Shown piece after piece: positions 126 through 55,159 of a DNA stretch of 64,000 nucleotides (position 1 is its first letter; every line of letters starts with the position of its first letter). Under the pieces are notes generated by a model. That model did not search any database. It saw only the letters and a program-made list of their open reading frames with translations, and had not been told where the DNA came from. Origin of the DNA: Laspinema sp. D2d (GTDB taxonomy: Bacteria; Cyanobacteriota; Cyanobacteriia; Cyanobacteriales; Laspinemataceae); the NCBI RefSeq assembly GCF_025370755.1, contig NZ_JAMXFC010000015.1, forward strand, positions 1-64,000, in the 5' to 3' direction. The translations under genes were made by a program, and so were the position numbers.

Positions 126-1619
126 TCACCGTTTCGGTTTTTCTGATGGCCTTTCCTTCACATCCCGGAAGGGAAATCGCCCCTGTTTAATCCCTTCTTT
201 GGCCCAATACCAGGCCCCCACCGAACAGGCCGCACTGAAGAACAACGCAATCAGAAAAGCCAACAACGGCAAAGGAAAAGAGGGTTCAACTTTTTCCCCT
301 TTCCACTCCCAAGGTTGAAACATTAACCCTGAAGTCGAAGCCACGATCGCCCCAGCAGCAATCCCCACCCCCACCGCTTGAATCTGGTCTTGCAAGTCTT
401 GATTTTCTTGCTGCTGATTGTGATTCATCTTGGCTTGTTCCACCTCAACAATGCCGCGCATGGTAGCAATACAGTGGCCGAATAGGGCTTGTCCTGGTTT
501 TAAATAATTCAGGTTTGTGTGGATTTGTCCTAATAATTTGGACCGGCATTCATAGCTAAAGGCTTGTAAAAAACTTAACTCCTGTTCTCCGTCAATATTT
601 GTTAATTCTTCCAATGTTGTGGTATAATTCTTTAAATTCGTAATTATCGTGGTGCGCTGGTCTTCAATATCCCGGATATGACTGGCATAGCTAAAGGCTT
701 GGGGGTTGATTTTGAGGAGAGCCTCCTGCAAAACCGTTAACTTTTCAGCCGTATCATCCGGCAATGTTTTTAATGCCTTCATCAGGGTTTCTAGCTCGGT
801 ATAAAGTTGACGACAGTCTCGATAGCTAGTCCGGGCTTGGTGATAGCTTAAACGGATTTTGCTGCGACAACAAAGCAAATTCATCAGGGGGTGATAGTAT
901 TTTGTAGATGCTTCGAGTTTGGCGGTATCAGGATGGCAGTCTAACCAGATGAGAATGTGACAGGATTGGGCCGGATTTTCCGCATCATTGTCATATTCAA
1001 AAATGGGACTGCTTAACAGTTTACCCTCGGCACGATAGGAGGGTAGAATAGGGAGGGTAGCGTTTGTGAGTAAGGCTTGTAAACAGCGATCGGCTAACTG
1101 GCGCAGGGTGTCAGGGGAGGGGGATTCTTCCGCGATGACAGGTTTGGCGAACAGGACCAACGTTTGGCCAATGGAAGCACAAATGCGATCGGGCAGCAGC
1201 ATTCCCTCGGGGTTGAGGTGAGTGAGTTCGGCAACAGGAACAATTCCCGGATAGCGAAACGTGAGGTCAGCCACATAAGTATCATGAAGTTGGACCGCGT
1301 AGAGTTCCCCATTGCGCCGAGGAGTATCCGATTTACCCTCTACCTCGGGAAAGTGGAAGCGCAAACAGCGATCGATTTCCTCCGAGAGGAGTTCTCGAAA
1401 CGCGATCGCTGCCTGCTGTTCCGGAATATTTAACCATTGACGACAGGTCTTGAGGGCTAGGATATCCAGCGACTCTCCCAATTCCTCAAACCGCTGCCAG
1501 AGCACATCAGCATCTTCCACCCGTTGCCCTTCCGCCAATGCCATATCATGACAGAGGTGGAAGGCATATAAGCTAAATTTGGGATAGTGGAGTAATTCTC
1601 CCGATAATTGTTCGATCAT
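126..1619 (-). CDS. Hypothetical protein with C-terminal membrane hairpin
   Basis: I do not recognise this 497-aa family. The first ~400 residues look soluble and mainly helical, with a charged, coiled-coil-like stretch around residues 260-400. The C-terminus carries two hydrophobic segments (one beginning VGVGIAAGAIVAS, one beginning PLPLLAFLIALFF) and ends in a basic tail, so it is probably anchored by its C-terminus. I chose the ATG at 1619 because AGGAAA precedes it at good spacing. A TTG ten codons upstream (1649) is in frame but has no ribosome-binding site. The gene stands alone, divergent from the Rpn gene at 1765. A soluble sensor-like part plus C-terminal TM hairpin is seen in some stress or defence effectors, but that role is only a guess. 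Confidence 0.75.
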   Translation of the reverse strand: MIEQLSGELLHYPKFSLYAFHLCHDMALAEGQRVEDADVLWQRFEELGESLDILALKTCRQWLNIPEQQAAIAFRELLSEEIDRCLRFHFPEVEGKSDTPRRNGELYAVQLHDTYVADLTFRYPGIVPVAELTHLNPEGMLLPDRICASIGQTLVLFAKPVIAEESPSPDTLRQLADRCLQALLTNATLPILPSYRAEGKLLSSPIFEYDNDAENPAQSCHILIWLDCHPDTAKLEASTKYYHPLMNLLCCRSKIRLSYHQARTSYRDCRQLYTELETLMKALKTLPDDTAEKLTVLQEALLKINPQAFSYASHIRDIEDQRTTIITNLKNYTTTLEELTNIDGEQELSFLQAFSYECRSKLLGQIHTNLNYLKPGQALFGHCIATMRGIVEVEQAKMNHNQQQENQDLQDQIQAVGVGIAAGAIVASTSGLMFQPWEWKGEKVEPSFPLPLLAFLIALFFSAACSVGAWYWAKEGIKQGRFPFRDVKERPSEKPKR

Positions 1620-2981: not shown

Positions 2982-3305
2982 TTACTTAGGCGGTGACTGG
3001 ATGCGACGGATGGCATTTTCCAGGATGTTTCGGTAGGTTTTGGGGTCGGGTGGCGGTGGGGCATGGCCTTGGGTTCCGGGGGCTTTGGAGTAATCAGAAA
3101 TAACATTCCCAGACATGGCATCCATTGCATCGCGAATGGGGGGATGAGATTCGTACCAATCGGCGATCGCATCGGACATTCCTTCCTTATCCTCCGGCAA
3201 ACTCTCTATCAAAGCTTCCACTTCCCCTGGGTAGTCCGCAAATAAAAGCGATTGGGTCTCTACCAATGTGATAAAATCTTGAATCATCTTGTCTTCTAGT
3301 GACAT
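2982..3305 (-). CDS. Small protein downstream of CHAT protease
   Basis: This 107-aa acidic protein of unknown family starts at ATG 3305 with a perfect AGGAGG ribosome-binding site, 11 bases after the stop of the CHAT protease gene, so the two are co-transcribed. The N-terminal ~65 residues look helical (MSLEDKMIQDFITLVETQ and a DAIADWYESHPPI segment). A proline-rich linker (APPPPDP) follows, then a basic C-terminal helix (NILENAIRRIQ). A longer frame to 3347 would overlap the CHAT gene and lacks a ribosome-binding site. By analogy with other TPR-CHAT proteases encoded beside a small partner or substrate, it could be the regulator or target of the protease. That is inference only. Confidence 0.7.
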   Translation of the reverse strand: MSLEDKMIQDFITLVETQSLLFADYPGEVEALIESLPEDKEGMSDAIADWYESHPPIRDAMDAMSGNVISDYSKAPGTQGHAPPPPDPKTYRNILENAIRRIQSPPK

Positions 3306-3316: not shown

Positions 3317-6300
3317 CTAAACACCGATCGCACAAAACCCCGCCCAATAATAAGGGGAGGCAAACGGTTTAGCCGTTGCATCCATTGTACTAAACCGCCG
3401 GAACTGCCGTCGATAAGTGGAACGTAACGTTAACTGACTTGACCACTCCTGCAACCCCTCCACCGTCACATCCCGCAGCCAGATTTGGGCCTGTTTCAGC
3501 GCCAGGGGAACCGTTTCACCCCTTTTGACATTTTGGTAAAAACGAATCATCAGCAAAGCTGTAGAAAGGTCATTCACGGTCCACAGAGAACAGACCACAT
3601 TGGGAGAACCCGCCAAAATAAACCCACTGGGTAACCCGATATATTCATCACTGGTGGAGGTAAAATCAGTGATGCCGGTTTCGCAAGCGGAGAGGGTGAC
3701 GAGACGGCAGTGGGTCAGGTCGAGGCGTAAGATATCCTCTATCGTGAGACACTTGCCCAAGTCGCGGAGATTGCCATTTTCCAGGGGAATATAGCGGCTT
3801 TGGTCCTCACTGGGTGGTGGCGGGGTAAATTCGCTCTTTGCCAGGATGAGGGCCGATTTCAGGGCATCTTCAAAATTGAAATAGCCGTGACAGGAGAAGT
3901 GAGTGCAGTGGGCATTTTTCAAGTTATCCCCATCGAGAATCGCGGCTTTTTCCGCTGCTTTATGTTGCAGGATATGGTGTGGATTGAATAGGGATTGAAT
4001 CGCTGCCACTTCGATATCCGTAAATTCCAAATCTTCGGTCGGGTTTTGGATAGCAAAGAGTTGGTTAAAATCGGGACGGGGCCGATTTTGGGCTTGCTTC
4101 AACACTTGGCAGTTAGGCGCGTAAGCGACCCCTTTCGGGAACAATTCCTGTAGGGTTGATGGCTGATTCTCTCCTGTGGCAACGGGTAAAGCATGGAGGG
4201 GAAACAGGTGCAGGAAGCAGTGAGGGATGAGGATGAGTTTTTTGCAGTTGGGGAATTTTTCCCGCAGGTTTTGCAGGATTTCATCCAGATGCAGGATTTG
4301 GGCAAGTTGTTCAAGACCTTGGGAGAGGTTATTTTGCCATTGGGTTTTGTTGTTGCGGTAGTCGTGGAGATAGGCGTTTCCCCAGTCGATGAGGTTTTGC
4401 CGGTCTTCCTGGGAAGATGTCCAGAGGTTAAGGGTTTGTTTGGTGAGGGTGAAAGTGAGGAATTTGTCATCTAGGACATACCATTCTAAGATGACGGTTT
4501 CATCATCAAGTAGAGATTTCATATCCGAGAATTTCAAGGGTTTATAGGGATATTTGGCTTGGAATTCTTCCCGCAGTTGGGTGATATGGGTATAGTCGGG
4601 TTTGGGGTCTTGTTGCAGGCGGCGGTCTTCTTCAGAAATCGCTTGACGGAGTTCTTGCAACCGTTGGCGGACTTCGGCAGGAATTTCTCCCCCTGGGTAT
4701 GCGTCACGGGTGGCAATTAGTTCGGTGAGGTTGCGGGCTTTACTGCGGTCTACATATTCAATCGCATCCTGATATCTGCCCAATTCTAGGCACACTTCCA
4801 CCATGCCGAGATAGATTCGATTATATTCTTCATTCAGTTTCCGTTTAGCTTCATCCCCAGAGATAATCTCCCCGCGCAGATATTCTACCGTATTTAGTGC
4901 CTGGTCAAAGATGTTGTAAGCATTTTCGAGAGCCGTTTGTTTCTTTTCGGGGTTGTGGGTGTAATGTTGATGAGATTGCTCTCGGTAGGCAAGACCGAGG
5001 TTAAATAAGGTTTTAATATGGTCTTGGGGAAAAGCCTCACGGGTTCTAACTGCTAAGGCGAGTTGATAGGCAGTGATCCCCTTTTCAAGGTTATCAGTCC
5101 GTTCCCCTTGGATGCGATATAAGTAGGCACAACCCAGATTATTTTGAATCTCTGCCCATTGTTCGGGAAAAGCCTTACGAGTATGAACGGCTAAGGCGAG
5201 TTGATAGGCAATAATCGCCTTTTCTAGATTATCAGATCGTTCCCCTTTGATGCGGTTACGGTAGGCATTACCCAGATTATTTTGAGTCATTGCCCATTCG
5301 TAGGGAAAAGCCTCACGGGTTCTAACTGCTAAGGCGAGTTGATAGGCAGCGATCGCCTGTTCCAGGTTATCAGCCCGTTCCCCTTTGATGCGGTCAGAGT
5401 AGACAGCAGCCAGATTATTTTGAGTCACTGCCCATTCGTAGGGGAAAGCCTCACGGGTACAAACGGCTAAGGCGAGTTCAGAGGCAGCAATCGCCTGTTC
5501 CAGGTTATCAGTCCGTTCCCCTTTGATGCGGTTATTGTAGGCAGCAGCCAGATTATTTTGAGTACGAGCCCATTTTTCGGGAAAAGCCTTACGGGTACAA
5601 ACGGCTAAGGCGATTTGATAGGCAGCGATCGCCTGTTCCAAGTTATCGGCTCGTTCTCCTTTGATGCGATATAAGTAGGCATTACCCAGATTATTTTGAG
5701 TGTCTGCCCAATATTGGGGAAAAGCCTCACGGGTATAAACGGCTAAGGCGAGTTCAGAGGCAGCAATCGCCTGTTCCAAGTTATCTGCCCGTTCCCCTTT
5801 GATGCGGTTACGGTAGGTTTCACCCAGATTACTTTGAGTAAGAGCCCATTTTTCGGGAAAAGCCTCACGGGTATAAACGGCTAAGGCGAGTTGATGGGCA
5901 GCGATTGCTTTTTCCACGTTATCAGCCCGTTCCCCTTTGATGCGGTTATTGTAGGCAACAGCCAGATTATTTTGAATCGCTGCCCATTCGTAGGGAAAAG
6001 GCTCATGGGTATAAACGGCTAAGGCGAGTTGATAGGCAGCGATGGCGATTTCCAGGTTATCGACCCGACGACCTAGGGGGAATTGTTGAATTAAATTGGC
6101 AAAACTGACAATAACTGCGGCAATGCCTGCGGCTTGTTCGACATTAACTTGAGAAAATTTATCCCTTGCCCAATCTGTTAATATTTTGGCTAAGTTTAAG
6201 TCTAATTTATCTAAGTTCTGCCTGAAGAGAGGAAAAACCATTGCTGAATTACCGTTGCTATCGGATGTGGCTTGCAGCACTTCCATCAAAAACTGTAAAT

Positions 6301-6979
6301 ACTCTTCCTGGGTGGCGTTACCCTGGGTTTTCCCCCGGCCTAAAAACGCCGTCATATCCTGCGCCACATTCCGCAAAAACTGCGCCTGATTGTCTTGTCC
6401 CGCCTCCTGCAACTGCGCTGCCTCCTGTTCACAGACCTGCACAAACTCCGCATCCACCAATTCGGTGGATCGGTTGAGGATATTGTTTTCCTCCCCACTC
6501 GGACAGTTGAGGAGTTGTTGAATCAAAGAGAAATAAGCCTGGACTCGTTGTTCATCTCTTCTTAGGAGAGCAGTTTGCAGTTTGGAAGGTTGAATATTTA
6601 GGTTTTCTAAAACCCGAATTGCGAGAGGATCTTGGCCTTGTAATAAACCCAATAGTAGATGTTCTGTCTTAATTTTATCACTACCCAATCTTTGAGATTC
6701 TTCGGCTGCAAATTCTACTAATTGTTTAACGCCAGACGTAAAAGAAATCTGTACGGTCACTGCCCCAGAACCACGACCAATTATTCTTTCAACTTCTTGA
6801 CGAGCAGCTTCCAGCTTAATATCTTGTTCTGCAAAAATCTGAGCAGCAACTCCTGTGCCTTCGCCAATTAATCCTAAAAGAATTTGTTCTGTTCCCACAA
6901 AGTTATGACCTAGGCGTCGGGCTTCTTCTTGTGCTAGGAGCATGACTTTGATGGCTTTATCGTTGAAACGTTCAATCAT
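3317..6979 (-). CDS. ClpC N-domain / TPR / CHAT protease fusion
   Basis: A 1220-aa three-part protein. Residues 1-~145 are a double Clp N-terminal repeat almost identical to the start of cyanobacterial ClpC (MIERFNDKAIKVMLLAQEEA, then HNFVGTEQILLGLI, then KTEHLLLGLLQ). About 150 residues follow that match the free protein encoded just upstream (IQQLLNCPSGEE). Next come eight 50-aa TPR-like units (core RIKGERADNLEQAIAAYQLA, about 4990-6080). The C-terminal ~330 residues are a CHAT caspase-like domain with His1031 in SCHGYF and Cys1099 in LSACETG. The start matches ClpC (MFERF in homologues); an ATG five codons earlier at 6994 is possible. No AAA+ domain follows the Clp N repeats. The gene lies between the solo module gene and the 107-aa gene in one operon. 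Proteolysis and recruitment through the N-domain are inferred. Confidence 0.9.
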   Translation of the reverse strand: MIERFNDKAIKVMLLAQEEARRLGHNFVGTEQILLGLIGEGTGVAAQIFAEQDIKLEAARQEVERIIGRGSGAVTVQISFTSGVKQLVEFAAEESQRLGSDKIKTEHLLLGLLQGQDPLAIRVLENLNIQPSKLQTALLRRDEQRVQAYFSLIQQLLNCPSGEENNILNRSTELVDAEFVQVCEQEAAQLQEAGQDNQAQFLRNVAQDMTAFLGRGKTQGNATQEEYLQFLMEVLQATSDSNGNSAMVFPLFRQNLDKLDLNLAKILTDWARDKFSQVNVEQAAGIAAVIVSFANLIQQFPLGRRVDNLEIAIAAYQLALAVYTHEPFPYEWAAIQNNLAVAYNNRIKGERADNVEKAIAAHQLALAVYTREAFPEKWALTQSNLGETYRNRIKGERADNLEQAIAASELALAVYTREAFPQYWADTQNNLGNAYLYRIKGERADNLEQAIAAYQIALAVCTRKAFPEKWARTQNNLAAAYNNRIKGERTDNLEQAIAASELALAVCTREAFPYEWAVTQNNLAAVYSDRIKGERADNLEQAIAAYQLALAVRTREAFPYEWAMTQNNLGNAYRNRIKGERSDNLEKAIIAYQLALAVHTRKAFPEQWAEIQNNLGCAYLYRIQGERTDNLEKGITAYQLALAVRTREAFPQDHIKTLFNLGLAYREQSHQHYTHNPEKKQTALENAYNIFDQALNTVEYLRGEIISGDEAKRKLNEEYNRIYLGMVEVCLELGRYQDAIEYVDRSKARNLTELIATRDAYPGGEIPAEVRQRLQELRQAISEEDRRLQQDPKPDYTHITQLREEFQAKYPYKPLKFSDMKSLLDDETVILEWYVLDDKFLTFTLTKQTLNLWTSSQEDRQNLIDWGNAYLHDYRNNKTQWQNNLSQGLEQLAQILHLDEILQNLREKFPNCKKLILIPHCFLHLFPLHALPVATGENQPSTLQELFPKGVAYAPNCQVLKQAQNRPRPDFNQLFAIQNPTEDLEFTDIEVAAIQSLFNPHHILQHKAAEKAAILDGDNLKNAHCTHFSCHGYFNFEDALKSALILAKSEFTPPPPSEDQSRYIPLENGNLRDLGKCLTIEDILRLDLTHCRLVTLSACETGITDFTSTSDEYIGLPSGFILAGSPNVVCSLWTVNDLSTALLMIRFYQNVKRGETVPLALKQAQIWLRDVTVEGLQEWSSQLTLRSTYRRQFRRFSTMDATAKPFASPYYWAGFCAIGV

Positions 6980-7021
6980 TGTTTTCTCAACCATTGTTTT
7001 CAGGGATAGTGATTGTATGAG

Positions 7022-7399
7022 TTAGGCCAGAAAATATTGCTTTACTACCAACTCCATATTTTTCCGCATCACCTGATGTACTGCTACCGCATCGCCACCA
7101 TTTTCCTTTTCGGCTTGTAGTAGTTTTTGGCAAAATTGTAGTAATGCCCCTTCCTGATTTTCTCCAGTCCCCTGCCTCGCCAAAAACGCCCCCACCTGTT
7201 GTGCCACATTCTGCAAAAACCCTGCATCATTCTCTCGCCAGGCCCCCTGCAACTGTGCCGCCACCTGTTCACACACCTGCACAAACCCCTCATCCACCCA
7301 CTCCCCATGACGGTTGAGGATTTGGTTTTCCTCCCCATCCGGACAGTTGAGGAGTTGTTGAATCAGGGACAGATAAGCCTGCATTCGTTGTTCGTTCAT
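7022..7399 (-). CDS. Free-standing N-terminal module of CHAT/TPR proteins
   Basis: This 125-aa protein (MNEQRMQAYLSLIQQLLNCP) matches residues ~145-270 of the ClpN-TPR-CHAT protein encoded 43 bases downstream, including VQVCEQ, AAQLQ and a FLA/FLGR segment. From general knowledge of the family, this sequence is the normal N-terminus of cyanobacterial TPR-CHAT proteins. The module therefore exists here twice, once alone and once behind a ClpC N-domain. It starts at ATG 7399 and heads the three-gene minus-strand operon. Its function is unknown; self-association with the matching region of the protease is a plausible inference. Confidence 0.75.
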   Translation of the reverse strand: MNEQRMQAYLSLIQQLLNCPDGEENQILNRHGEWVDEGFVQVCEQVAAQLQGAWRENDAGFLQNVAQQVGAFLARQGTGENQEGALLQFCQKLLQAEKENGGDAVAVHQVMRKNMELVVKQYFLA

Positions 7400-7445
7400 A
7401 GTGGCGCATCGGGTAGGGGATAGACCCCGATTTTACCCCATTCCT

Positions 7446-7549
7446 GCCACTCAGAAACCGGGTTTGTTTCTTAAATCTTTGTGAAGGAATAGAGATACTG
7501 CCAGAAACCCGGTTTCTTTTCCCACACCGAACTGCCAGAAACCGAATAT
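7446..7549. repeat. GAAACCGGGTTTC-type short repeats
   Basis: Copies of AGAAACCGGGTTTG, AGAAACCCGGTTTCT and a partial AGAAACCGAAT occur in this spacer upstream of the CHAT operon. Related copies lie near 8615 and at about 59315-59330. They are short imperfect palindromes typical of dispersed cyanobacterial repeats. Confidence 0.6.
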
Positions 7550-7615
7550 CTTCCCTGATCAAGATGATTTATAATGATTCTTAGACTCAAATCACCTTAA
7601 AACTCAACCTTTCCC

Positions 7616-7915: not shown

Positions 7916-8158
7916 TTAAGGGAAATACCGATAAAAGTCCTTACGGTGCAGAACTCGCATGAGTTCTATCTGGTCTCCATTGACCTCAAAACCAATCCGA
8001 TAATTGCCAACTCGGATACGATATCGGTTGGATGCTCCCGCTAACGCCTTAAGATTCGGTAAATCTTGAAGAGATGCTGTTTCTGGTAATGTGGTGAAAA
8101 CCAATTCATAAATTGATGAATGAATTTCCTGTTTGTTGAGCTTTTTTAAATCTTTCAA
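7916..8158 (-). CDS. RelE/ParE-type toxin
   Basis: An 80-aa protein with the typical RelE-fold sequence: an N-terminal helix (MKDLKKLNKQEI), a DLPNLKALAG segment, YRIRVGNYRIGFEV, and a C-terminal LMRVLHRKDFYRYFP that carries the basic and aromatic residues of the active surface. Such toxins cleave translated mRNA at the ribosome. Translation probably begins at TTG 8158, preceded by AGAGGA; an in-frame TAG a few codons upstream leaves little room for a longer form. The start of the usual N-terminal strand is therefore shorter than in many relatives. The antitoxin gene ends 23 bases upstream on the same strand. Confidence 0.85.
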   Translation of the reverse strand: MKDLKKLNKQEIHSSIYELVFTTLPETASLQDLPNLKALAGASNRYRIRVGNYRIGFEVNGDQIELMRVLHRKDFYRYFP

Positions 8159-8181: not shown

Positions 8182-8412
8182 TCAATCTTCATCGTCTCCT
8201 AAAAATTCAAGAGCTTGCTGGCGGCTGAGAAGCGGGGTTTCTTTGGCTTCATCCATTGCTTTATTGAGGCAATAGTCTTCGATATTTTCTGTCATGGTTT
8301 CGAGGGAGGGGTTGTCTTGAGGGAGAATTTGCCTCCACAAATCAATTGGAACAACGACAGCCGTTAGCTTGCCCTCTGAATCGGTGATATATCCAACTTC
8401 TTGGGGATTCAT
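8182..8412 (-). CDS. Antitoxin of the RelE-type pair
   Basis: This 76-aa acidic protein (MNPQEVGYITDSEGKLTAVV, then VPIDLWRQI, ending EFLGDDED) precedes the RelE-like toxin in the same transcript. Its N-terminal half has the layout of Phd/RelB-like antitoxins in cyanobacteria: a short strand region that would bind DNA and dimerise. The acidic C-terminal tail would wrap the toxin. It starts at ATG 8412. As with other type II pairs it probably represses its own promoter, inferred from the family. Confidence 0.75.
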   Translation of the reverse strand: MNPQEVGYITDSEGKLTAVVVPIDLWRQILPQDNPSLETMTENIEDYCLNKAMDEAKETPLLSRQQALEFLGDDED

Positions 8413-14943: not shown

Positions 14944-17502
14944 GTGAGACAAGAGCATTTATTCAATAGTCTATGGATGGCAAGCACGATTGCCCTCGTC
15001 GCAGCGGGTCCCGTGTCTGCACAGGTGTCGCTGATTACCGGGGTTCGCCTCAATCCAACCCCGACGGGCGTGGAGGTGGTTTTAGAAACCCTCTCAGGAG
15101 GAACGCCGGAAGTGTTGACTTCTCAAGACGGGGAAACGTTTATTGCTGATATTGTTAACGCCCAATTACGCTTACCCGGTGGGGAAAATTTTCAGGCGGA
15201 TAACCCGATTGAGGGGATTAGTGCGATCGCCGTGACAGCAGGGGAAGGAAACCAAGTGCGAGTCACCGTCACCGGCGCAACTGCCGTCCCTGTCACCGAT
15301 TTTGTGGTGGAAAATGGACAAATTGGGTTCCGGGTCACTCCTTCGGCGGAAACCGTAACGGTTCCACCCACAGAAACAGAAACATCCCCGGAAACGGAAA
15401 CAGAAACATCCCCGGAAACGGAAACAGAAACAGAAACAGAAACAGTGCCTGCGGATCAGGAGATTATTGAACTGATTGTGACGGCAACCCGGATCGCCGA
15501 ACAAATCACAGATGTTCCCGCATCGATTTCCGTGGTGGGGGAAGAAAAAATCGAAGAACAAACCCGACTAACGCGAGATTTGGGAACTATTCTCTCACAG
15601 GAGGTCCCGGGATTGTCTGTGGGGACTCAAAGTGCGAGTACCTTCGGACAAACCTTGCGGGGTCGCAATATTAGTGTGATTATTGATGGAGTCCCGCAGT
15701 CTACGAACCGCAACTCTGCCCGGGATTTACGGACTATTGATCCCTCGGCGATCGAACGGGTGGAAGTGCTACGAGGACCGACGGCGATTTATGGCGATGG
15801 CGCAACCGGCGGGGTCATTAATATTATTACGAAGCGGGGAAGAGGCGAGGGAGTACAAGCGGAAACCACCGTAGATCTCAATGCCTTTCCTACTAATTTG
15901 GGTGAGACTTTTGGACAAAATATCCAACAATCTTTTTCCGGCAGTTTAGGGAATTTTGATTTTGCTCTGAATGGTTCGTTTAGTCGTACCAGTGCTCAGT
16001 TTGATGCGTGGGGCGATCGCATTCCTCCAGACCCCAATGCTCAAGGGGGAATTGGGGATAGTAATACGTTTAACCTTTTAAGCAAAGTTGGGGTCAACCT
16101 TACCGATTCCCAACGCCTACAATTCACTGCAAATTACTTTCGGGATACGCAAGATACGGACTACACCACCGATCCCATTGTCGATGAAATTCCCGGACGA
16201 CAAAGGGCGCGAGCATTGGAGGGATTGGATTTAGACGAGTCCCAACAAACCACAAATTTGAATACGAGTCTGGACTATACTCATGATGATATTTTGGGGA
16301 GTAGTTTCCAGGGTCAGATTTATTATCGAGATTATTTTACCCGGTTCTTTCCCTTCGATGCCCGGGAATTTGCCAGTTTAGGCAATACGATTTTTCAGTC
16401 CCGAGTCGAATCGGAAAAATATGGAGCAAGGCTACAAGTTGATACGCCCATTGTAGATGCAGGCCGAGCCAATTTACTCTGGGGAGTCGATTTAGTTCGG
16501 GAAAATACCAATCAGCCGGTTTCTATCTTTGATCCAGTGGCTTTTGATAACAGTAATGGCTTGACTTACGACCGGACGGGGAGCCGTACTTGGTCACCGT
16601 TTCAGCGGCAAGATAATTTAGGATTATTTGCTCAATTGAAATGGAACGTTAGCGATCGCGTGGTGTTGCGCGGGGGCGTCCGTCACGAACGGATTAACGT
16701 GGATGTGAATGACTATACCACCCTATCGGGAAACCGCATCCAAGGGGGTGAACTGGATTATAATGCCACCCTATTTAATGTGGGAAGCGTGGTTTATCCC
16801 ACAGAGGAAATTAGTTTATTCGCTAATTTTTCCCAAGGATTTTCTATTGCTGATGTGGGACGGGTCCTGCGGGGGGCTGCCCCAGGATTTACCGTAGAAT
16901 CCCTCGATCCCGAAGCCCAAACCGTCAATAATTATGAAATTGGAATTCGGGGCAACTATGAACGAATTCAAACCTCCCTCGCCGGGTTTTATAATACCTC
17001 CAATCTCGGGTCTAGCTTTACCCAAGATTTTGAAATTCTACGCGCACCGGAACGAGTTTATGGGGTAGAATTTGCCCTGGATGCTCAACCGAGTGAGAAT
17101 TGGGGATTAGGAACTTCCTTCACTTGGACTGAAGGCGGGGCGGATATCAATGATGATGGAGATTATGAAAGTCCCCTCAATGGGTTCCGGATTTCTCCGA
17201 TTAAAATTACCGCCTATATCGAGAATGAAACCTTACCCGGATGGAACAACCGTCTCCAAGCATTGTATTCTGGAACTCGCAATCCCACCGGGGAAGGATT
17301 TGGTTTGTTAGAGGTGGATAGCTACGTTACTTTAGATTTAATCAGTAGCTTGAATATTGGGCGGGGTCGTCTCGTTTTGGGGGTGGAAAATTTATTCAAT
17401 GCGGAATATTTTCCGGTGGTTTCTCAATTGCAAGGTGCGGATACCGCTTATGCCGCAGGGCGCGGGAGAAGCATTCGCTTAGGATATTCTTTCAGTTGGT
17501 AA
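14944..17502 (+). CDS. TonB-dependent siderophore receptor with AMIN domain
   Basis: An 852-aa outer-membrane receptor of the FhuA/IutA-like cyanobacterial class, expected to import the ferric siderophore made by the genes that follow. A signal peptide (to about residue 26, PVSAQ) is followed by an AMIN-like domain (~residues 28-135), a Thr/Glu/Pro spacer with repeated PETETETS units, the plug (ELIVTATRIAEQITDVP; VEVLRGPTAIYGDGATGGVINI) and the barrel, ending with the aromatic terminal residue in RLGYSFSW. Start is GTG 14944 with AAGGAG five bases upstream. A Fur-like site and a structured leader precede it. A likely counterpart is the schizokinen receptor SchT of Anabaena; substrate identity is inferred. 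Confidence 0.93.
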   Translation: MRQEHLFNSLWMASTIALVAAGPVSAQVSLITGVRLNPTPTGVEVVLETLSGGTPEVLTSQDGETFIADIVNAQLRLPGGENFQADNPIEGISAIAVTAGEGNQVRVTVTGATAVPVTDFVVENGQIGFRVTPSAETVTVPPTETETSPETETETSPETETETETETVPADQEIIELIVTATRIAEQITDVPASISVVGEEKIEEQTRLTRDLGTILSQEVPGLSVGTQSASTFGQTLRGRNISVIIDGVPQSTNRNSARDLRTIDPSAIERVEVLRGPTAIYGDGATGGVINIITKRGRGEGVQAETTVDLNAFPTNLGETFGQNIQQSFSGSLGNFDFALNGSFSRTSAQFDAWGDRIPPDPNAQGGIGDSNTFNLLSKVGVNLTDSQRLQFTANYFRDTQDTDYTTDPIVDEIPGRQRARALEGLDLDESQQTTNLNTSLDYTHDDILGSSFQGQIYYRDYFTRFFPFDAREFASLGNTIFQSRVESEKYGARLQVDTPIVDAGRANLLWGVDLVRENTNQPVSIFDPVAFDNSNGLTYDRTGSRTWSPFQRQDNLGLFAQLKWNVSDRVVLRGGVRHERINVDVNDYTTLSGNRIQGGELDYNATLFNVGSVVYPTEEISLFANFSQGFSIADVGRVLRGAAPGFTVESLDPEAQTVNNYEIGIRGNYERIQTSLAGFYNTSNLGSSFTQDFEILRAPERVYGVEFALDAQPSENWGLGTSFTWTEGGADINDDGDYESPLNGFRISPIKITAYIENETLPGWNNRLQALYSGTRNPTGEGFGLLEVDSYVTLDLISSLNIGRGRLVLGVENLFNAEYFPVVSQLQGADTAYAAGRGRSIRLGYSFSW

Positions 17503-17651
17503 GGGAGGGGGAACGCTAACCCAGTGAATTGCGATCGCCGATGAATCAGAACAGGTTCGGAGGCGATCGCACTAAGAAAATCGGCTCAAAACCTTGCAGC
17601 ATCAGGATTCCGGGTAATCCCGAGAGACACTAAAAAAAAATTTTCTCTAGC

Positions 17652-17710
17652 TATTGCTAAAATTTCTCAGGAGTAGTATGCTGAATCACAATTGAAAATA
17701 ACTCTCAATT
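17652..17710 (+). promoter_or_regulatory. Tandem Fur-like boxes before the siderophore operon
   Basis: AATTGAAAATAACTCTCAATT (17690-17710) is a clear 21-bp imperfect palindrome of Fur type. A second weaker match, TATTGCTAAAATTTCTCAGGA, lies at 17652-17672. They precede the diaminobutyrate transaminase gene by 41 and 79 bases. Iron repression of the operon is the natural inference. Confidence 0.65.
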
Positions 17711-17751
17711 ATTATTTAGGATTCTGTGCAACAAATCAGAGGGATCAAATC

Positions 17752-19200
17752 GTGGTAAATCACATCAATAAAGGCTTTCATGACCAGGAACCGGACCTTA
17801 CTTTACTCCCCAGGGCTGATTACCCAACTTCATTACCTAAGAATCAATCGCAAGAGTATTTAAACCGGCAGGCGCAGCGCGAATCTAATGCCCGCAGCTA
17901 TCCCCGGCGGATTCCCATCGCCATTCGGGAAGCAAAAGGAGTGTTTATTACCGATACCGATGGTAATCAATATTTAGACTGTTTAGCAGGGGCGGGAACC
18001 CTGGCATTGGGACATAATCATCCAGTAGCGATCGCCGCCATGCGAGAGGTTCTCGATAGTAGTCTCCCCTTGCATACCTTGGACCTAACAACTCCGGTGA
18101 AAGACCAGTTTGTCGAGGAGTTGTTTGCTAGTTTACCTGCTGGGTTTGCCCGGAATGCCCGGATCCAGTTTTGTGGGCCGACTGGGGCTGACGCCACGGA
18201 AGCGGCAGTTAAGCTAGTCAAGACGGCAACAGGTCGGCGGAGTATGCTATCGTTTCATGGCGGTTATCATGGAATGACTCATGGGGCGTTAAGTTTGACG
18301 GGAAACCTTGCACCGAAACAGCAAGTTGCGAATTTAATGCCGGAGGTTCATTTTCTCCCCTATCCCTATAATTATCGCTGTCCGTTTGGGATCGGAGGTG
18401 AGTTTGGACATCGCCTCAGCAGTCATTATATTGAGCATATTCTCACAGACCCTGAAAGTGGGATTACACCCCCTGCCGGGATGATTCTGGAAATGGTTCA
18501 AGGGGAAGGCGGGGCGATTCCAGCCCCCGATCGCTGGGTGAGAGAGATTCGACGGATTACCCGCGATCGCGGCATCCCCCTGATTGTGGATGAAATTCAG
18601 ACGGGGTGGGGTCGGACGGGCAAACTCTATGCCTTTGAACACGCGGGGATTGTTCCCGATGTGGTGTTGTTATCGAAGGCGATCGGGGGGAGTTTACCCT
18701 TATCGGTGGTGTTGTATCACAAAGATTTGGATCAATGGTCTCCTGGCGCACACGCGGGTACATTCCGAGGAAATCAAATGGCAATGGCGGCAGGATTAGC
18801 GACCCTGCGATACATTCAGGATTTTGGCTTGGTGGATCGCGCCCATGAATTGGGCGATCGCCTGATGGGTCATTTGCGGCAATTACAAGGGGATTCCCGC
18901 TGTATCGGTGAGGTACGGGGACGGGGGTTAATGGTGGGGGTAGAAATCGTGAATACCGACGCTACAGCCTGCGATCGCGGTAGTTATCCAGCCCATACCT
19001 TACTAGCGCGGCGCATCCAATCGGAATGTCTGAGTCGGGGGTTGATTCTGGAATTGGGGGGTCGTCATGGATCTGTAGTCCGGTTTTTACCGCCTTTGAT
19101 TATCACCGCAGAGCAAATTGACCAGGTTTGTGAGATATTCGCCGCAGCGGTGAAGGCAGCGGAAGGGCTGATGTCGGAACAGTTAGCAGAGGTAAGCTAA
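17752..19200 (+). CDS. dat: Diaminobutyrate--2-oxoglutarate transaminase
   Basis: A 482-aa class III PLP aminotransferase that makes L-2,4-diaminobutyrate from aspartate semialdehyde, the first step toward 1,3-diaminopropane. Visible features: GAGTLALGHNHP, GPTGADATEAAVKL (cofactor phosphate site), SFHGGYHGMTHG, the DEIQTGWGRTG block and the PLP lysine in LLSKAIGGSLP. I chose GTG 17752 because AGAGGG stands eight bases before it and the Fur-like box lies just upstream. The longer frame from TTG 17692 would put the operator inside the gene. Its stop overlaps the decarboxylase start (TAATG), so the two are translationally coupled, as in rhizobactin-type clusters. Confidence 0.93.
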   Translation: MVNHINKGFHDQEPDLTLLPRADYPTSLPKNQSQEYLNRQAQRESNARSYPRRIPIAIREAKGVFITDTDGNQYLDCLAGAGTLALGHNHPVAIAAMREVLDSSLPLHTLDLTTPVKDQFVEELFASLPAGFARNARIQFCGPTGADATEAAVKLVKTATGRRSMLSFHGGYHGMTHGALSLTGNLAPKQQVANLMPEVHFLPYPYNYRCPFGIGGEFGHRLSSHYIEHILTDPESGITPPAGMILEMVQGEGGAIPAPDRWVREIRRITRDRGIPLIVDEIQTGWGRTGKLYAFEHAGIVPDVVLLSKAIGGSLPLSVVLYHKDLDQWSPGAHAGTFRGNQMAMAAGLATLRYIQDFGLVDRAHELGDRLMGHLRQLQGDSRCIGEVRGRGLMVGVEIVNTDATACDRGSYPAHTLLARRIQSECLSRGLILELGGRHGSVVRFLPPLIITAEQIDQVCEIFAAAVKAAEGLMSEQLAEVS

Positions 19201-20720
19201 TGTTAGAGGTAGAACAAAAAGGGGTGATCGCGTCAGAGGATGGGCGGTGGGATACCTGTTTTCTGACAGATTCTGAGGTGAGTATTGAGGCGTATCGGCA
19301 GGCGATCGCGGATGCGGCAGCGGAGGTGATTCGCCAGTTTGCCTGTCAGAAACAGCCCTATAGTGGCGCAACGCCGATTGAGTTGGTGGCAGGGTTGGCA
19401 GGGACAGAGATTTGTCCGAAAAATCCACAATTATTAGGAGATATTCTTAATAAGGTGGGGGAGAAGGCGATCGCGCATTCCGTGGTTGTCACCCATCCGC
19501 GCTGTATCGCACATTTACATTGTCCTCCTCTGATTCCGGCGTTAGCGGCAGAGGTGTTGATTTCGGCAACGAATCAATCGATGGATTCCTGGGACCAAAG
19601 TCCTGCCGCGACTGTGTTGGAACAGCAGTTAACCAACTGGTTATGCAGTGAATTTGGCTATGATGCGGCAGCGGATGGCATCTTCACCAGTGGGGGAACC
19701 CAGTCGAATTTTATGGGGATGTTACTAGCGCGCGATCGCTATGCTAAACAGCAATTAAATTGGTCGATTCAGCAGCAAGGATTACCCCCTCAAGCGCATC
19801 AATGGCGCATTTTATGTTCAGATGTCGCCCATTTTACGATTCGCCAATCTTGTGCGTTATTAGGATTGGGAGAACAAGCGGTTATTCCCGTAGAAACAGA
19901 TGAAAATTACCGATTATCTCCCGATGCAGTTCGGATGAAATTAGCTGAATTGCAGGCACAAGGGTTAACGGCGATCGCAATGGTAGCAACCGTTGGAACT
20001 ACGGATTTTGGCAGTATTGATCCGTTGCTTCCCTTAGCAGAAATTGCTCAAGAAAACGGACTGTGGTTCCACATTGATGCTGCTTATGGGGGGGCATTGG
20101 TAATGAGCGATCGGTATCGCCCCCAACTCGCAGGAATCGAGTTGTCAGATTCAATTACGGTAGACTTTCACAAGTTATTTTATCAGCCGATTAGTTGTGG
20201 AGCATTTTTGCTTAAAGACAAGTCAAATTTTGAATTAATGAAACTCCACGCCGATTATCTCAACCCTGAAACTAACGAAGCGGAAGGAATTTCCGATTTA
20301 GTTACAAAATCCATCCAAACTACTCGCCGATTTGATGCCCTAAAACTTTGGATTTCGTTACAGGTATTGGGACGAGCAAAGTTTTGTGAAATGATAGAAA
20401 CCACGATTCAAATTGCCTCTGCAACGGCACAAATGATTCGCGCCGATTCTCAATTGGAACTCGCCACTATTCCAACCCTGAATGCCGTAGTTTTTCGCTA
20501 CAGTTCCGGAAATTCAGAACAGGATAATTGGATTAATTCCCAAATTCGCTTAACGTTGCTGCAACGGGGGGAAGTTGTGTTGGCGCAAACCTGCATTGCC
20601 GGGAATGCGTATCTTAAATTTACCCTCCTCAATCCTCGAACAACCCTGGCTGATATTGGGACAATTCTCGACAGAGTGAAGCAAGTCGGGACTGAATTCA
20701 GTTTGTCTTTGTCGAACTAA
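19200..20720 (+). CDS. ddc: L-2,4-diaminobutyrate decarboxylase
   Basis: A 506-aa group II PLP-dependent decarboxylase that turns diaminobutyrate into 1,3-diaminopropane, the diamine backbone of the siderophore. Motifs: HPRCIAHLHCPPLIPALAAE, GIFTSGGTQSNFMGML, the cofactor-binding HIDAAYGGAL and the PLP lysine in TVDFHKLFYQP. Length is typical for the Dat/Ddc pair. It starts at ATG 19200, overlapping the transaminase stop by one base. An IucA/IucC synthetase follows after 24 bases, so it lies within the operon. Confidence 0.93.
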   Translation: MLEVEQKGVIASEDGRWDTCFLTDSEVSIEAYRQAIADAAAEVIRQFACQKQPYSGATPIELVAGLAGTEICPKNPQLLGDILNKVGEKAIAHSVVVTHPRCIAHLHCPPLIPALAAEVLISATNQSMDSWDQSPAATVLEQQLTNWLCSEFGYDAAADGIFTSGGTQSNFMGMLLARDRYAKQQLNWSIQQQGLPPQAHQWRILCSDVAHFTIRQSCALLGLGEQAVIPVETDENYRLSPDAVRMKLAELQAQGLTAIAMVATVGTTDFGSIDPLLPLAEIAQENGLWFHIDAAYGGALVMSDRYRPQLAGIELSDSITVDFHKLFYQPISCGAFLLKDKSNFELMKLHADYLNPETNEAEGISDLVTKSIQTTRRFDALKLWISLQVLGRAKFCEMIETTIQIASATAQMIRADSQLELATIPTLNAVVFRYSSGNSEQDNWINSQIRLTLLQRGEVVLAQTCIAGNAYLKFTLLNPRTTLADIGTILDRVKQVGTEFSLSLSN

Positions 20721-20744
20721 CCCACCTTACCTCAACCCATCAAA

Positions 20745-22574
20745 ATGGTACAACAACTGACCGTAATTAAACGAGAACAGAACATCAATCTGACGGATAA
20801 ACAGATTGCCGATCGCGCTACGATTCAAAGTTTTTTGAATTGTTATCTGAAGGAAACCGGCAGCGGCAAAGTTGGCAGTCGAGAAGAGTATCCCGAACTG
20901 CAAACCCGCCTGGAATCTGCCCAAATTCTCTGCTGTTCTTTACCGAATCAAGGGGTAGAAGTCAAGGCGGGAGTTCGCTATTTGTCCCTAACAGGACGGC
21001 ATTGCTTTGAATTTCCCCTGTACTATCAAATGGCGGGGAAATCGGAACTGATAGAACTCGATTATGTAACATTAGTCGCCCTATTTAGCAAAGAATTAGC
21101 CCTGGCGAATCATAGCAGTGGGTCCCAAGATGAACTGCTGTTACGGGTGGTTCAAAGTTGCCGCAATATTGAACAATTCGTCCGCGATCGGCGTCGGGAT
21201 GCAGAAATCCTCACAGGGTTTCACAGCACCTTTGGGGAAACGGAACAAGCCTTAATTTTCGGACATCTGTTGCATCCCACTCCCAAGAGTCGTCAAGGGT
21301 TTGCGGATGAAGATTTACCGATTTATTCCCCAGAATTAAAAGGCAAATTTCCCTTACATTATTTTCGGCTACATCCCTCGATAGTCTTAGAAGGGTCTGC
21401 ACTTCCAGAAACCGCTACCCAGTTGATTAAAACTGAACTGATTGCGGATCCGCAAGTCTCTGAACAATTTAAGCAGCAGTATTGTCAAACCGATGAGTAT
21501 TCCCTGCTGCCGTTGCATCCCTGGCAAGCACAGTATTTGCGCCGCCAACCTGTGGGACAAACCTTATTTAATCAGGGATTACTCGAAGATTTGGGACCCC
21601 AGGGACGGGCATTTTTGCCCACTTCTTCCATTCGGACGGTTTATCATTCTGATGCCGCTTTCATGTTCAAACTTTCCCTGAATGTGAAGATTACCAACTC
21701 GGTACGAATGAATCTTTATAAAGAGTTGGAACGCAGTGTGGAAGTCTATCAGATTTTAGCCGGTCCCATAGGGAAAGAATTGCAACAAAATTATCCGGAT
21801 TTTGATATCATTCGGGACCCGGCATTTTTAGCGGTTCAATTCAACGGCGAACCCCTCCCCGCTTTTGCCACAATTCTGCGACAAAATCCCTTTCAAACTA
21901 ATCCAGCAACCGATGCTACCTGCATTAGTTCCCTCTGCCAAGATTCAATTTATGGGGATGGTTCTCGTTTAGCACATCTGATTAAAACGTTAGCTAAACA
22001 AGAAAATCGTACCTCATCAGAGGTGAGTTTAGATTGGTTCCGCCGCTACTTAAAAGTTTCTTTACAACCGATTCTCTGGTTGTATTTCACGCATGGAATC
22101 GCGGTGGAAGCCCATCAGCAAAATAGTGTAGTGCAGTTAGCCGAGGGATATCCAGAACGGTTTTACTATCGAGACAATCAAGGCTATTATTTCCGTCAGT
22201 CTTGTTATGAACATCTCAACACAATTCAGCCGGGAATTGGGGAGAAAAGTCAAACGGTATGCGAGGATGCCGTTGCCGATGAACGTTTGGCATATTATTT
22301 CTTCCAAAACAATCTGTTTGGCTTAATTAATGGGTTTGGAGTAGCGGGATTAGTGGATGAAACCCTCTTGCTGGCTGAGTTGCGTCAAGTGTTGGAACAG
22401 GCAAAAGAGATAAATTCCAATGGGTCCAATATTTTGGAAAATTTATCTAAGCCGAAGTTACGTTGTAAAGCCAATTTACTAACGCGATTTCATGATATGG
22501 ATGAGTTAGTGGGTTCTTTGGCAACTCAGTCGGTTTATGTGGAGTTGGATAATCCATTGGTTGCCGGTTTATAG
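20745..22574 (+). CDS. IucA/IucC family siderophore synthetase (first)
   Basis: A 609-aa NRPS-independent siderophore (NIS) synthetase. These ATP-dependent enzymes adenylate a carboxylate of citrate and join it to the hydroxylated, acylated diamine. The family signature is present: GHLLHPTPKSRQGF for ATP binding, LLPLHPWQAQY, FLPTSSIRTVYH and KLSLNVKITNSVRM. C-terminal ferric-iron-reductase-like helices follow (LKVSLQPILWLYFTHGIAVEAH). Type A or B by position; exact substrate order is inferred. The gene is complete with an ATG start, 24 bases after the decarboxylase. A ~100-base repeat-containing spacer follows. Confidence 0.93.
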   Translation: MVQQLTVIKREQNINLTDKQIADRATIQSFLNCYLKETGSGKVGSREEYPELQTRLESAQILCCSLPNQGVEVKAGVRYLSLTGRHCFEFPLYYQMAGKSELIELDYVTLVALFSKELALANHSSGSQDELLLRVVQSCRNIEQFVRDRRRDAEILTGFHSTFGETEQALIFGHLLHPTPKSRQGFADEDLPIYSPELKGKFPLHYFRLHPSIVLEGSALPETATQLIKTELIADPQVSEQFKQQYCQTDEYSLLPLHPWQAQYLRRQPVGQTLFNQGLLEDLGPQGRAFLPTSSIRTVYHSDAAFMFKLSLNVKITNSVRMNLYKELERSVEVYQILAGPIGKELQQNYPDFDIIRDPAFLAVQFNGEPLPAFATILRQNPFQTNPATDATCISSLCQDSIYGDGSRLAHLIKTLAKQENRTSSEVSLDWFRRYLKVSLQPILWLYFTHGIAVEAHQQNSVVQLAEGYPERFYYRDNQGYYFRQSCYEHLNTIQPGIGEKSQTVCEDAVADERLAYYFFQNNLFGLINGFGVAGLVDETLLLAELRQVLEQAKEINSNGSNILENLSKPKLRCKANLLTRFHDMDELVGSLATQSVYVELDNPLVAGL

Positions 22575-22676
22575 AATGTTCGTAGTGACGCCTTCAGGGG
22601 TCAAAAAAAGGCAACCCATGAAGGGGTTACTACAAACGTTCCTAGTGACGCAAGAAATAGAATAATACCGAAAATT
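22575..22676. repeat. Short direct/inverted repeats in operon spacer
   Basis: GTTCGTAGTGACGCCTTCA and GTTCCTAGTGACGCAAG flank AACCCATGAAGGGGTTACTAC. CGTAGTGACG-type repeats of this kind are dispersed in Oscillatoriales. They interrupt the otherwise tightly packed operon. Confidence 0.55.
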
Positions 22677-23267
22677 ATGGCATCAATAGAATTAGAAAAA
22701 AAGCTAGATTTTGCTTACCAGAAGTATGACTCAACCTTGGATAAAACCATTGCTTTTCGCCCGGTTCAGTTAGAGAAAGATTTACGGAGAATTCATCAGT
22801 GGATGAATCAACCTCATGTGATTCCCTTTTGGAATTTAGGGTTAGCGTTGGATAAAATGCAGGCGCATTTGGAACGGGCGATCGCAGATACCCATCAAAT
22901 GCTCTATATTGGGTATTTAGATGGCGTTCCCATGAGTTATTGGGAGTCCTATTGGACGAAGGATGATATCATTGCTAAGTGTTATCAACCCCATCTGGAG
23001 GACCAGGGAATTCATTTGTTAATTGGCGAACCGGATTATCTGGGAAAAGGGTATGCGTTACCGTTGTTAAAGGCGATGACGGCGTTTCAGTTGCAGCATT
23101 TGCCGACTCAAAAAATTGTCACAGAACCGGATATTCGCAATCAAAAAATGATTCATGTATTTGAACGTTGCGGGTTTGAATTTCAGCGGCAAATTACTTT
23201 ACCGGATAAACAAGCTGCTTTGATGTTTTGCAGTCGCGATCGCTTTATGGAGAAGTGGGAATCATGA
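22677..23267 (+). CDS. GNAT N-acyltransferase of siderophore synthesis (IucB/RhbD-like)
   Basis: A 196-aa acetyltransferase of the IucB/RhbD type that acylates the N-hydroxylated diaminopropane to make the hydroxamate. Features: FRPVQLEKDLRRIHQWMNQPHV, PFWNLG, LYIGYLDGVPMSYWESYW, the acyl-CoA loop in GEPDYLGKGYALPLL and the C-terminal RNQKMIHVFERCGFEF. With acetyl-CoA the product would be schizokinen; with a fatty acyl-CoA, synechobactin. The sequence alone does not decide. Its stop overlaps the next gene's ATG by four bases (ATGA), so it is translationally coupled to the monooxygenase. Confidence 0.9.
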   Translation: MASIELEKKLDFAYQKYDSTLDKTIAFRPVQLEKDLRRIHQWMNQPHVIPFWNLGLALDKMQAHLERAIADTHQMLYIGYLDGVPMSYWESYWTKDDIIAKCYQPHLEDQGIHLLIGEPDYLGKGYALPLLKAMTAFQLQHLPTQKIVTEPDIRNQKMIHVFERCGFEFQRQITLPDKQAALMFCSRDRFMEKWES

Positions 23268-25764: not shown

Positions 25765-25786
25765 TTGAATTTAAGGAATTAAAACA

Positions 25787-27610: not shown

Positions 27611-27647
27611 AAAAGAACCAACCCTTACCGGCGTTAGGTTTCAGCGG

Positions 27648-27671
27648 ATTAGCCCGTCAAGGCGGGCTAAT
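27648..27671. terminator. Hairpin between biosynthesis and uptake genes
   Basis: ATTAGCCCG and CGGGCTAAT form a stem around a short loop in the spacer after the second synthetase. No U-run follows, so it may attenuate rather than end transcription, or may be a repeat. Confidence 0.35.
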
Positions 27672-27765
27672 TCCCGGCAAGGAGTTTAAAGGTAAATGAG
27701 GGAAAAAATGATGCAAACTCAAAGTACAATTAGCCCAATTGTTGACAACGTAAGGAGGACTCATC

Positions 27766-29837: not shown

Positions 29838-29849
29838 AATCAGGCAATT

Positions 29850-30004: not shown

Positions 30005-30038
30005 ACCAGTAACAACCGAATTTTGTATTAATTATAGA

Positions 30039-55108: not shown

Positions 55109-55159
55109 AACCGAAAGCAGTTGTTTATAGCGGTTCCCACAATTATAAGGTAAATTTTG

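What the first reader, a model, noticed from the sequence alone, without database searches (positions are those of the whole stretch)
3317..6979. ClpC N-domain fused to TPR repeats and a CHAT protease
The first ~145 residues are almost a copy of the ClpC substrate/adaptor-binding N-domain, yet no AAA+ module follows. Eight 50-aa TPR units and a CHAT protease with intact His1031/Cys1099 come instead. A chaperone-protease recognition domain has been placed on a caspase-like protease. It could read the same adaptors or degron marks as ClpC, or sense attack on ClpC. I know CHAT-TPR proteins as a family but not this fusion.
Basis: partly seen in the sequence, partly recalled or inferred. Interest (0 to 1): 0.8.

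Follow-up and report, generated by a model that had tools for sequence, protein, structure and literature searches.

The report
ClpC domain on caspase-like protease
A filamentous cyanobacterium carries a caspase-like protease whose front end is the recognition domain of the chaperone ClpC, which suggests a protease switch whose trigger module can be swapped and which may read signals of protein quality control.

Summary
Confirmed: an intact minus-strand ORF (1,225 aa; 1,220 from the ClpC-like start) joins a ClpC-type N-domain, a helical linker, eight 46-residue TPR units and a CHAT domain with His and Cys in place. Laspinema olomoucense D3b has the same fusion, so it is no assembly chimera. 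The N-domain is no fresh copy of the host's ClpC: it is 61% identical and forms its own clade (96/95) with a Clp_N on a Ser/Thr kinase of a Spirulina MAG. At the same locus three other Laspinema genomes keep the CHAT half (56-74% identical over the shared part) behind a long TPR solenoid; against one of them about 1.36 kb differs. A protein with two predicted TM segments lies within 4 kb of 38 of 44 CHAT relatives, and a 107-aa protein follows CHAT directly in 12 of 20 loci. Best reading: a CHAT protease switch with exchangeable inputs, here a ClpC N-domain, acting with these partners. What the N-domain binds is unknown: a ClpC client or adaptor, ClpC itself, or an attacker of ClpC. ClpN repeats on vWA conflict proteins are in print; my searches found none on CHAT. 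New variant of a known kind.

The parts
3317..6994 (-). Clp_N-linker-TPR-CHAT fusion gene, 1,225 aa (1,220 aa if started at 6979)
   Evidence: same fused frame in L. olomoucense D3b
6557..6979 (-). ClpC-type N-domain (two Clp_N repeats), residues 6-146
   Evidence: Pfam; PDB sequence match; AlphaFold model of the N-terminal part matches 5gui at TM 0.90 by target length
6065..6556 (-). helical linker domain, residues 147-310, shared with other cyanobacterial CHAT-TPR proteins; no PDB match (best E 0.16)
4895..6064 (-). TPR array, eight units of 46 residues (one unit more in L. olomoucense)
3323..4306 (-). CHAT domain, residues 897-1224; His1036 (3887-3889), Cys1104 (3683-3685)
   Evidence: Cys aligned with the Cys of the ACET/ACES motif of Csx29-type chains in weak matches; dN/dS 0.137
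6073..7430 (-). exchanged block: window sequence that stands where the syntenic CHAT gene of G003 has a long TPR N-terminus
   Evidence: protein homology starts at residue 308; DNA homology resumes at 7430
7022..7399 (-). 125-aa stand-alone copy of the linker's N-terminal part, 27 bp upstream of the fusion ORF; nucleotide identity 1.000 to L. olomoucense
2982..3305 (-). 107-aa protein starting 11 bp after the CHAT stop; directly downstream of CHAT in 12 of 20 loci fetched; candidate substrate or inhibitor (inference)
126..1616 (-). 496-aa protein with two predicted C-terminal TM segments (415-433, 449-467, hydropathy only); a relative lies within 4 kb of 38 of 44 CHAT rows; candidate membrane effector or substrate (inference)

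Best explanation
It is a TPR-CHAT protease switch with an exchangeable input module. Shown: at one Laspinema locus the CHAT half is kept while the N-terminus is either a TPR solenoid or Clp_N plus linker; the CHAT half is under purifying selection; a small protein and a protein with two predicted TM segments recur beside CHAT genes. Inferred: the ClpC N-domain binds a peptide-type ligand of the sort ClpC's N-domain binds (an adaptor-held or damaged client), this relieves autoinhibition by the TPR array, and the CHAT protease then cleaves the downstream 107-aa protein and/or the two-TM protein, ending in growth arrest or cell death. In effect it would couple overload or disturbance of ClpC-dependent proteolysis to a caspase-like response. 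The ligand is the weakest step; I would give the ClpC-client/adaptor version about 0.35 by itself.
For: Domains and dyad. Module swap at one locus: G003, G007 and G005 carry the CHAT half (74, 59 and 56% identical over the shared part) behind a TPR N-terminus without Clp_N; against G003 homology breaks at residue 308 and at base 7430. Purifying selection on CHAT, dN/dS 0.137. The 5' block is almost identical to L. olomoucense (dS 0.029 for Clp_N, 0 for P0002) against dS 0.14-0.35 for five neighbouring genes and 0.49 for CHAT, from which I infer a recent move of the cassette. Same Clp_N lineage on a kinase elsewhere. Partners: 12 of 20 loci and 38 of 44 CHAT rows. By my reading of the sequences the genome holds ClpC, a second ClpC-like protein and two ClpB-like proteins, and it has two ClpS matches, so ligands of ClpC's N-domain are likely present.
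Against: No activity, binding or expression data. The N-domain has lost ClpC's F2 (Ile7) and T6 (Asn11), and of 130 columns at least 95% invariant in 57 ClpC rows only 74 are kept in all three fusions, so the ligand may not be ClpC's. dN/dS outside CHAT is higher: 0.62 for Clp_N (few changes), 0.71 for the linker, 0.80 for the TPR array, so constraint on the input half is not shown by this pair. Close Clp_N fusions are rare: 3 of 291 genomes in the order sample scored above ClpC, two of them CHAT and one kinase (the listing was cut, so lower-scoring ones could be hidden). The partners follow CHAT genes with other N-termini too, so they say nothing about the ClpC domain, and 7 of 20 loci with the small gene showed no CHAT. 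That the CHAT protein cleaves them rests on analogy only.
Confidence: 0.55

Rival explanations
1. Integrated decoy: the ClpC N-domain is bait. Phage proteins or cyclic peptides that attack ClpC's N-domain bind it and thereby switch on the CHAT protease, giving altruistic death or dormancy.
For: The N-domain is an antibiotic target in mycobacteria, and a stand-alone relative (ClpC2) protects by sequestering cyclomarin (PMC10030653, passages). F85 and K90 are kept in all three fusions and E94 in the two CHAT fusions. Phages carry Clp_N proteins too short for AAA+ modules: Myrna gp251, a 708-nt CDS, phrog_35667 (235 positions) matched at E 4.9e-32, and a 215-codon frame on an IMG/VR contig.
Against: F2, reported critical for cyclomarin, is Ile7; no cyanobacterial attacker of ClpC is known to me; a decoy should stay close to its model, yet repeat 2 is only 45% identical. 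Many of the 24 phage records are short unannotated Listeria, Staphylococcus or faecal contigs that may simply hold bacterial ClpC (my reading).
Confidence: 0.17
2. Adaptor docking in the style of effector-associated domains: Clp_N pairs with another Clp_N, or with ClpC itself, and brings CHAT or kinase modules to a shared complex.
For: One Clp_N lineage occurs on both a CHAT protein and a kinase; divergent proteins that look Clp_N-like to me sit beside kinase genes in four genomes (only the Spirulina kinase was confirmed by Pfam, the other three are by eye); ClpN repeats on vWA proteins of FtsH ternary systems are in print (PMC7159879 passage).
Against: In this genome the only other PF02861 matches are in four proteins that I read as two ClpC-like and two ClpB-like ATPases; no second Clp_N copy was found beside the fusion. 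Of the 15 matches to the divergent Clp_N-like protein, 11 lie in frames of 809-896 codons, the three of these that I looked at being Clp-type ATPases by eye. ClpC N-domains are not known to me to pair with each other.
Confidence: 0.2
3. Substrate delivery: the N-domain recruits ClpS1, ClpS2 or NblA and hands their cargo to the CHAT protease for limited cleavage, an ATP-independent side route to ClpCP.
For: ClpS and NblA are the known cyanobacterial ClpC adaptors (PMC7966870 passages); two ClpS matches are present.
Against: CHAT proteases studied so far are specific rather than bulk degraders (recalled); the alternative N-terminus at the same locus is a TPR solenoid, not another degron reader. 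NblA was not searched in this genome.
Confidence: 0.13
4. Neutral fusion: the N-domain is a passenger left by recombination.
For: dN/dS of the N-domain is 0.62 on very few changes; narrow distribution.
Against: Both repeats and the frame are intact in two species; the same lineage recurs on a kinase, and 64 of 152 alignment columns are invariant across the three fusions and both ClpC paralogues of the host.
Confidence: 0.06

Closest known systems
TPR-CHAT proteases (Csx29 of type III-E CRISPR, Craspase)
   Same: TPR array followed by CHAT with His/Cys; the Cys aligns with the Cys of the ACET/ACES motif of Csx29-type chains (that this is their catalytic Cys is recalled); a cleavable partner is encoded nearby (Csx30 for Csx29, recalled; only proposed here)
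   Different: Sequence match is weak (PDB E 0.0024; NCBIfam 42 bits against a cut-off of 300). Cas7-11 was not searched for in the genome; the PADLOC scan of seven window proteins gave one weak gRAMP match (E 0.007) to the 507-aa neighbour, which I take as noise. The N-terminus is a ClpC domain
ClpC (Hsp100) N-domain
   Same: Fold and 61% identity to the host ClpC N-domain
   Different: No AAA+ family found, so no unfoldase; separate clade
Mycobacterial ClpC2
   Same: ClpC-type N-domain without AAA+ (PMC10030653, passages)
   Different: ClpC2 sequesters a drug and is not described there as carrying a protease domain
Effector-associated domains and the FtsH ternary conflict systems with ClpN repeats on the vWA component (Kaur et al. 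2020, PMC7159879, passages)
   Same: A small non-catalytic domain joined to different effectors; ClpN is named there as a rare fusion
   Different: There ClpN sits on a vWA protein of a MoxR/FtsH system; the word CHAT does not occur in that paper's main text

Membership tests
CHAT caspase-like protease | CHAT domain over the curated cut-off | tested here: met
   166.6 bits against 24
CHAT caspase-like protease | His and Cys in the conserved motifs | tested here: met
   SCHG and SACETG in the window and in four syntenic relatives; Cys aligned to Csx29-type chains
CHAT caspase-like protease | proteolytic activity | not testable with these tools
   needs an assay
ClpC / Hsp100 ATPase | two-repeat Clp_N domain | tested here: met
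ClpC / Hsp100 ATPase | AAA+ modules | tested here: not met
   no AAA family in the Pfam scan; TPR and CHAT follow
Effector-associated domain (EAD) system | small non-catalytic domain found on different effectors | tested here: met
   the same Clp_N lineage on CHAT and on a kinase, though in different organisms
Effector-associated domain (EAD) system | second copy of the domain on a core component, often in the same operon or genome | tested here: not met
   other PF02861 proteins of this genome read as ClpC- and ClpB-type ATPases; the neighbour P0002 repeats the linker, not Clp_N
Type III-E CRISPR Csx29 | match over NCBIfam cut-off | tested here: not met
   42 bits against 300

The most novel reading that the evidence does not exclude
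A bacterial integrated-decoy sensor: a caspase-like protease wears the attacked part of the essential ClpC machine so that phage proteins or peptide antibiotics aimed at ClpC's N-domain trigger the host's death or dormancy programme, with the bait exchanged between species as a cassette.
Probability: 0.15. Interest if true: 0.88.

Novelty: new variant of a known kind. Interest (0 to 1): 0.6.

Why it matters
It gives a natural comparison (same CHAT half, same locus, two different N-termini) with which to ask what switches on cyanobacterial CHAT proteases, which are numerous (32 CHAT matches in this genome) and, to my knowledge, mostly of unknown trigger. It also shows a ClpC-type N-domain outside ClpC on two kinds of signalling enzyme, and it points to a small protein and a protein with two predicted TM segments as candidate targets of a large CHAT family.

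Tried and rejected
Assembly chimera: rejected, because the same fused frame is in L. olomoucense D3b. Recent capture from host ClpC: rejected by the tree. Defence-system membership: PADLOC gave no match for the fusion at E <= 0.01; the gRAMP match of the 507-aa neighbour (E 0.007) was treated as noise. Search for close Clp_N relatives outside ClpC: the genome-contig scan with repeat 2 found four loci, two of them fusions (L. olomoucense CHAT, Spirulina MAG kinase) and two ClpC-type ATPases by eye. In the phylum sample of 386 genomes every listed row other than the window has a frame of 820-923 codons, which I took as ClpC by length; weaker rows were cut from the output. Linker fold: the AlphaFold model of P0002 (pLDDT 77) had no PDB match at E <= 0.001. 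Plasmid search with the first 198 residues gave 65 records; of the 40 listed none has a CHAT annotation under the match, 25 were not listed. Promoter and terminator scan: about as many sites as in shuffles. The dN/dS row for the 107-aa gene failed through my wrong coordinates in L101 and was dropped.

Counts. The 44 CHAT rows were picked by hand from the listed rows, aiming at one row per gene that reaches the CHAT half; N-terminal-only rows were left out, and rows cut from that listing were not seen. One of the 44 is the window itself and many are from the same genus, so they are not independent. The partner rows were a hand-typed part of the listed rows; rows left out could only raise the count. 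Of the six CHAT rows without a partner within 4 kb, five had none typed on their contig (G033:C28 is only 3,028 bases long) and one lay 511 kb away. I expect about 1% by chance, an estimate and not a computation. The 20 loci are those fetched for the 24 matches; 12 have CHAT directly upstream, one has a CHAT end about 1.35 kb upstream with another ORF between, 7 showed no CHAT by tblastn.
Full report
WHAT IS THERE. The ORF lies on the minus strand, 3317-6994 (1,225 aa). Pfam finds two Clp_N stretches, TPR repeats and CHAT, and no AAA family. Residues 6-146 match the solved N-domain of chloroplast ClpC1 (5gui, E 2.5e-48), and an AlphaFold model of the N-terminal part (mean pLDDT 70.9, its last 60 residues under 50) matches it at TM 0.90 by target length. 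Residues 147-310 form a helical linker that other cyanobacterial CHAT-TPR proteins share; its best PDB sequence match has E 0.16. The TPR units repeat every 46 residues. The CHAT domain has His1036 and Cys1104, and the Cys aligns with the Cys of the ACET/ACES motif of Csx29-type chains in weak matches.

IS IT REAL. The same fused frame, 1,272 aa, occurs in G002, which is Laspinema olomoucense D3b by the named record; the Clp_N part is 96% and the CHAT part 89% identical. So the fusion is not an assembly artefact. The CHAT part is under purifying selection (dN/dS 0.137). The ratio is 0.62 for Clp_N, 0.71 for the linker and 0.80 for the TPR array, on few changes in the first two, so constraint on the input half is not shown by this pair.

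WHERE THE N-DOMAIN COMES FROM. Cyanobacterial ClpC N-domains are nearly invariant: 27 of the 64 rows of my tree are one identical sequence over the 140 columns kept. The fusion N-domain is 61% identical to the host's ClpC and 52% to its second ClpC-like protein, with repeat 1 at 75% and repeat 2 at 45% to ClpC. In the tree it forms a clade of three (96/95) with L. olomoucense and with a Clp_N of a Spirulina MAG. That third protein is Clp_N plus Ser/Thr kinase plus TPR, cut by the contig end. So a Clp_N lineage separate from ClpC has been joined to at least two kinds of signalling enzyme. Close members are rare: 3 of 291 genomes in the order sample scored above ClpC, only the window stood out among the listed rows of 386 phylum genomes, and the GTDB-wide pattern scan gave 2 fusion loci (records very near the window's own may be left out there). 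Two of these listings were cut, and the queries favour close relatives, so distant Clp_N fusions could be missed.

A MODULE SWAP AT ONE LOCUS. In the window the CHAT gene has the 107-aa gene, DUF4351 and the 496-aa gene on one side and P0003 and guaA on the other. In G003, G007 and G005 the same neighbourhood holds a CHAT gene; in G005 the order of the genes differs. Its C-terminal part is 74%, 59% and 56% identical to window residues 308-1225, 314-1224 and 245-1225 (the last includes part of the linker), but its N-terminus is a long TPR solenoid without Clp_N. G004 has no CHAT match in the 15 kb fetched beside guaA, and the contigs of G001 and G006 end near it. Against G003 the break points are residue 308 and base 7430, so a block of about 1.36 kb differs. 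Which state is older is not shown. Between the window and L. olomoucense the seven 100-bp bins from 6861 to 7560 have identity 1.00 to two decimals, and bins on to about 8360 have 0.94-0.99. Synonymous divergence is 0 in P0002 and 0.029 in Clp_N, against 0.14 (DUF4351), 0.15 (P0003), 0.23 (496-aa gene), 0.29 (guaA), 0.35 (DUF3352) and 0.49 (CHAT). I infer recent exchange of this block between species. It carries a 125-aa stand-alone copy of the linker's first part. A ParE-like and RelB-like pair lies just beyond the block that differs from G003.

PARTNERS. A 107-aa protein starts 11 bp after the CHAT stop. Matches were found in 19 of 59 genomes, the own one included; in 12 of the 20 loci fetched the gene follows a CHAT gene directly, in one more a CHAT end lies about 1.35 kb upstream with another ORF between, and in seven my tblastn saw no CHAT. 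The 496-aa protein at 126-1616 has two C-terminal TM segments by hydropathy and no Pfam family better than E 0.03; matches occur in 36 of 59 genomes, and one lies within 4 kb of 38 of 44 hand-picked CHAT rows, the window included. By analogy with other CHAT systems I propose that one or both are targets. This is inference.

WHAT THE N-DOMAIN MIGHT READ. Of 130 columns that are at least 95% invariant in 57 ClpC rows, 74 are kept in all three fusions. The glutamates that correspond to E32 and E106 of Staphylococcus ClpC, tied to the phosphoarginine sites (PMC12583610 passages), are kept (E36, E111). K85, described there as crucial for ClpC's resting state and contacted by cyclic peptides in the Mycobacterium protein, is kept as K90. 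Of F2, F80 and E89, reported critical for cyclomarin (PMC10030653 passages), F80 is kept as F85, E89 as E94 in the two CHAT fusions but not in the kinase fusion, and F2 is Ile7 in the CHAT fusions. Residue equivalences are mine, from the alignments. Cyanobacteria are not known to me to have the arginine kinase McsB, so phosphoarginine seems an unlikely ligand. The known cyanobacterial ClpC adaptors are ClpS1, ClpS2 and NblA (PMC7966870 passages); this genome has two ClpS matches; NblA was not searched. The other PF02861 proteins of the genome read as two ClpC-like and two ClpB-like ATPases, so a private Clp_N partner is unlikely here. In other cyanobacteria, divergent proteins that look Clp_N-like to me (Pfam does not call the 262-aa one) stand beside kinase genes: Spirulina MAG, G133, G032 and, in a 605-codon frame with AAA-like sequence, G053 (the last three kinases by eye). 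Against this as a rule: that search matched 15 of 194 genomes, and 11 of the 15 matches lie in frames of 809-896 codons, of which the three I looked at are Clp-type ATPases by eye.

COMPARISON. It works like a TPR-CHAT protease with a changed input. It is a CHAT family member by domain and motif, not a ClpC (no AAA family), and not a Csx29 (42 bits against 300). An EAD reading is tempting, but the feature of a second copy on a core component was tested in this genome and not met. In print, Kaur et al. 2020 mention ClpN repeats fused to the vWA component in rare variants of FtsH ternary systems (PMC7159879, passage); [quoted passage not shown] Searches for Clp_N or ClpC with CHAT or effector-associated domains returned no paper, and one with Clp_N and kinase returned only PMC7159879; the library lacks most subscription journals.

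VERDICT. Real, intact and unusual; a new variant of a known kind. The strongest new facts are the module swap at one locus, the separate Clp_N lineage shared with a kinase, and the recurrent partners. The mechanism of recognition remains open.

Noticed in passing
window 7916-8158 and 8182-8412 (-): ParE-like toxin and RelB-like antitoxin pair inside the stretch of high identity to L. olomoucense, next to the exchanged block.
   Followed up: partly
window 51948-59208 (+): NACHT protein, then a short CHAT protein overlapping it by 4 bp, then an nSTAND1-WD40 protein of 1,311 aa: a second conflict-type cluster in the same window.
   Followed up: no
window 14944-32111 (+): TonB-dependent receptor, two IucA/IucC-type proteins and a FecCD transporter: looks like a siderophore locus of the NRPS-independent type.
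   Followed up: no
L102, L166, L167, L169: Divergent proteins that look Clp_N-like beside Ser/Thr kinase genes in four cyanobacterial genomes; three of the kinases by eye only.
   Followed up: partly
L192 1471-2178 (Mycobacterium phage Myrna gp251); L141 4740-5384: Phage-encoded Clp_N proteins too short to carry AAA+ modules.
   Followed up: partly
L104 (G000:C56:28000-34000): A second, diverged ClpC-like ATPase (842 codons) besides the main ClpC of this genome, followed by an ORF that reads by eye as a C5-type DNA methyltransferase.
   Followed up: no
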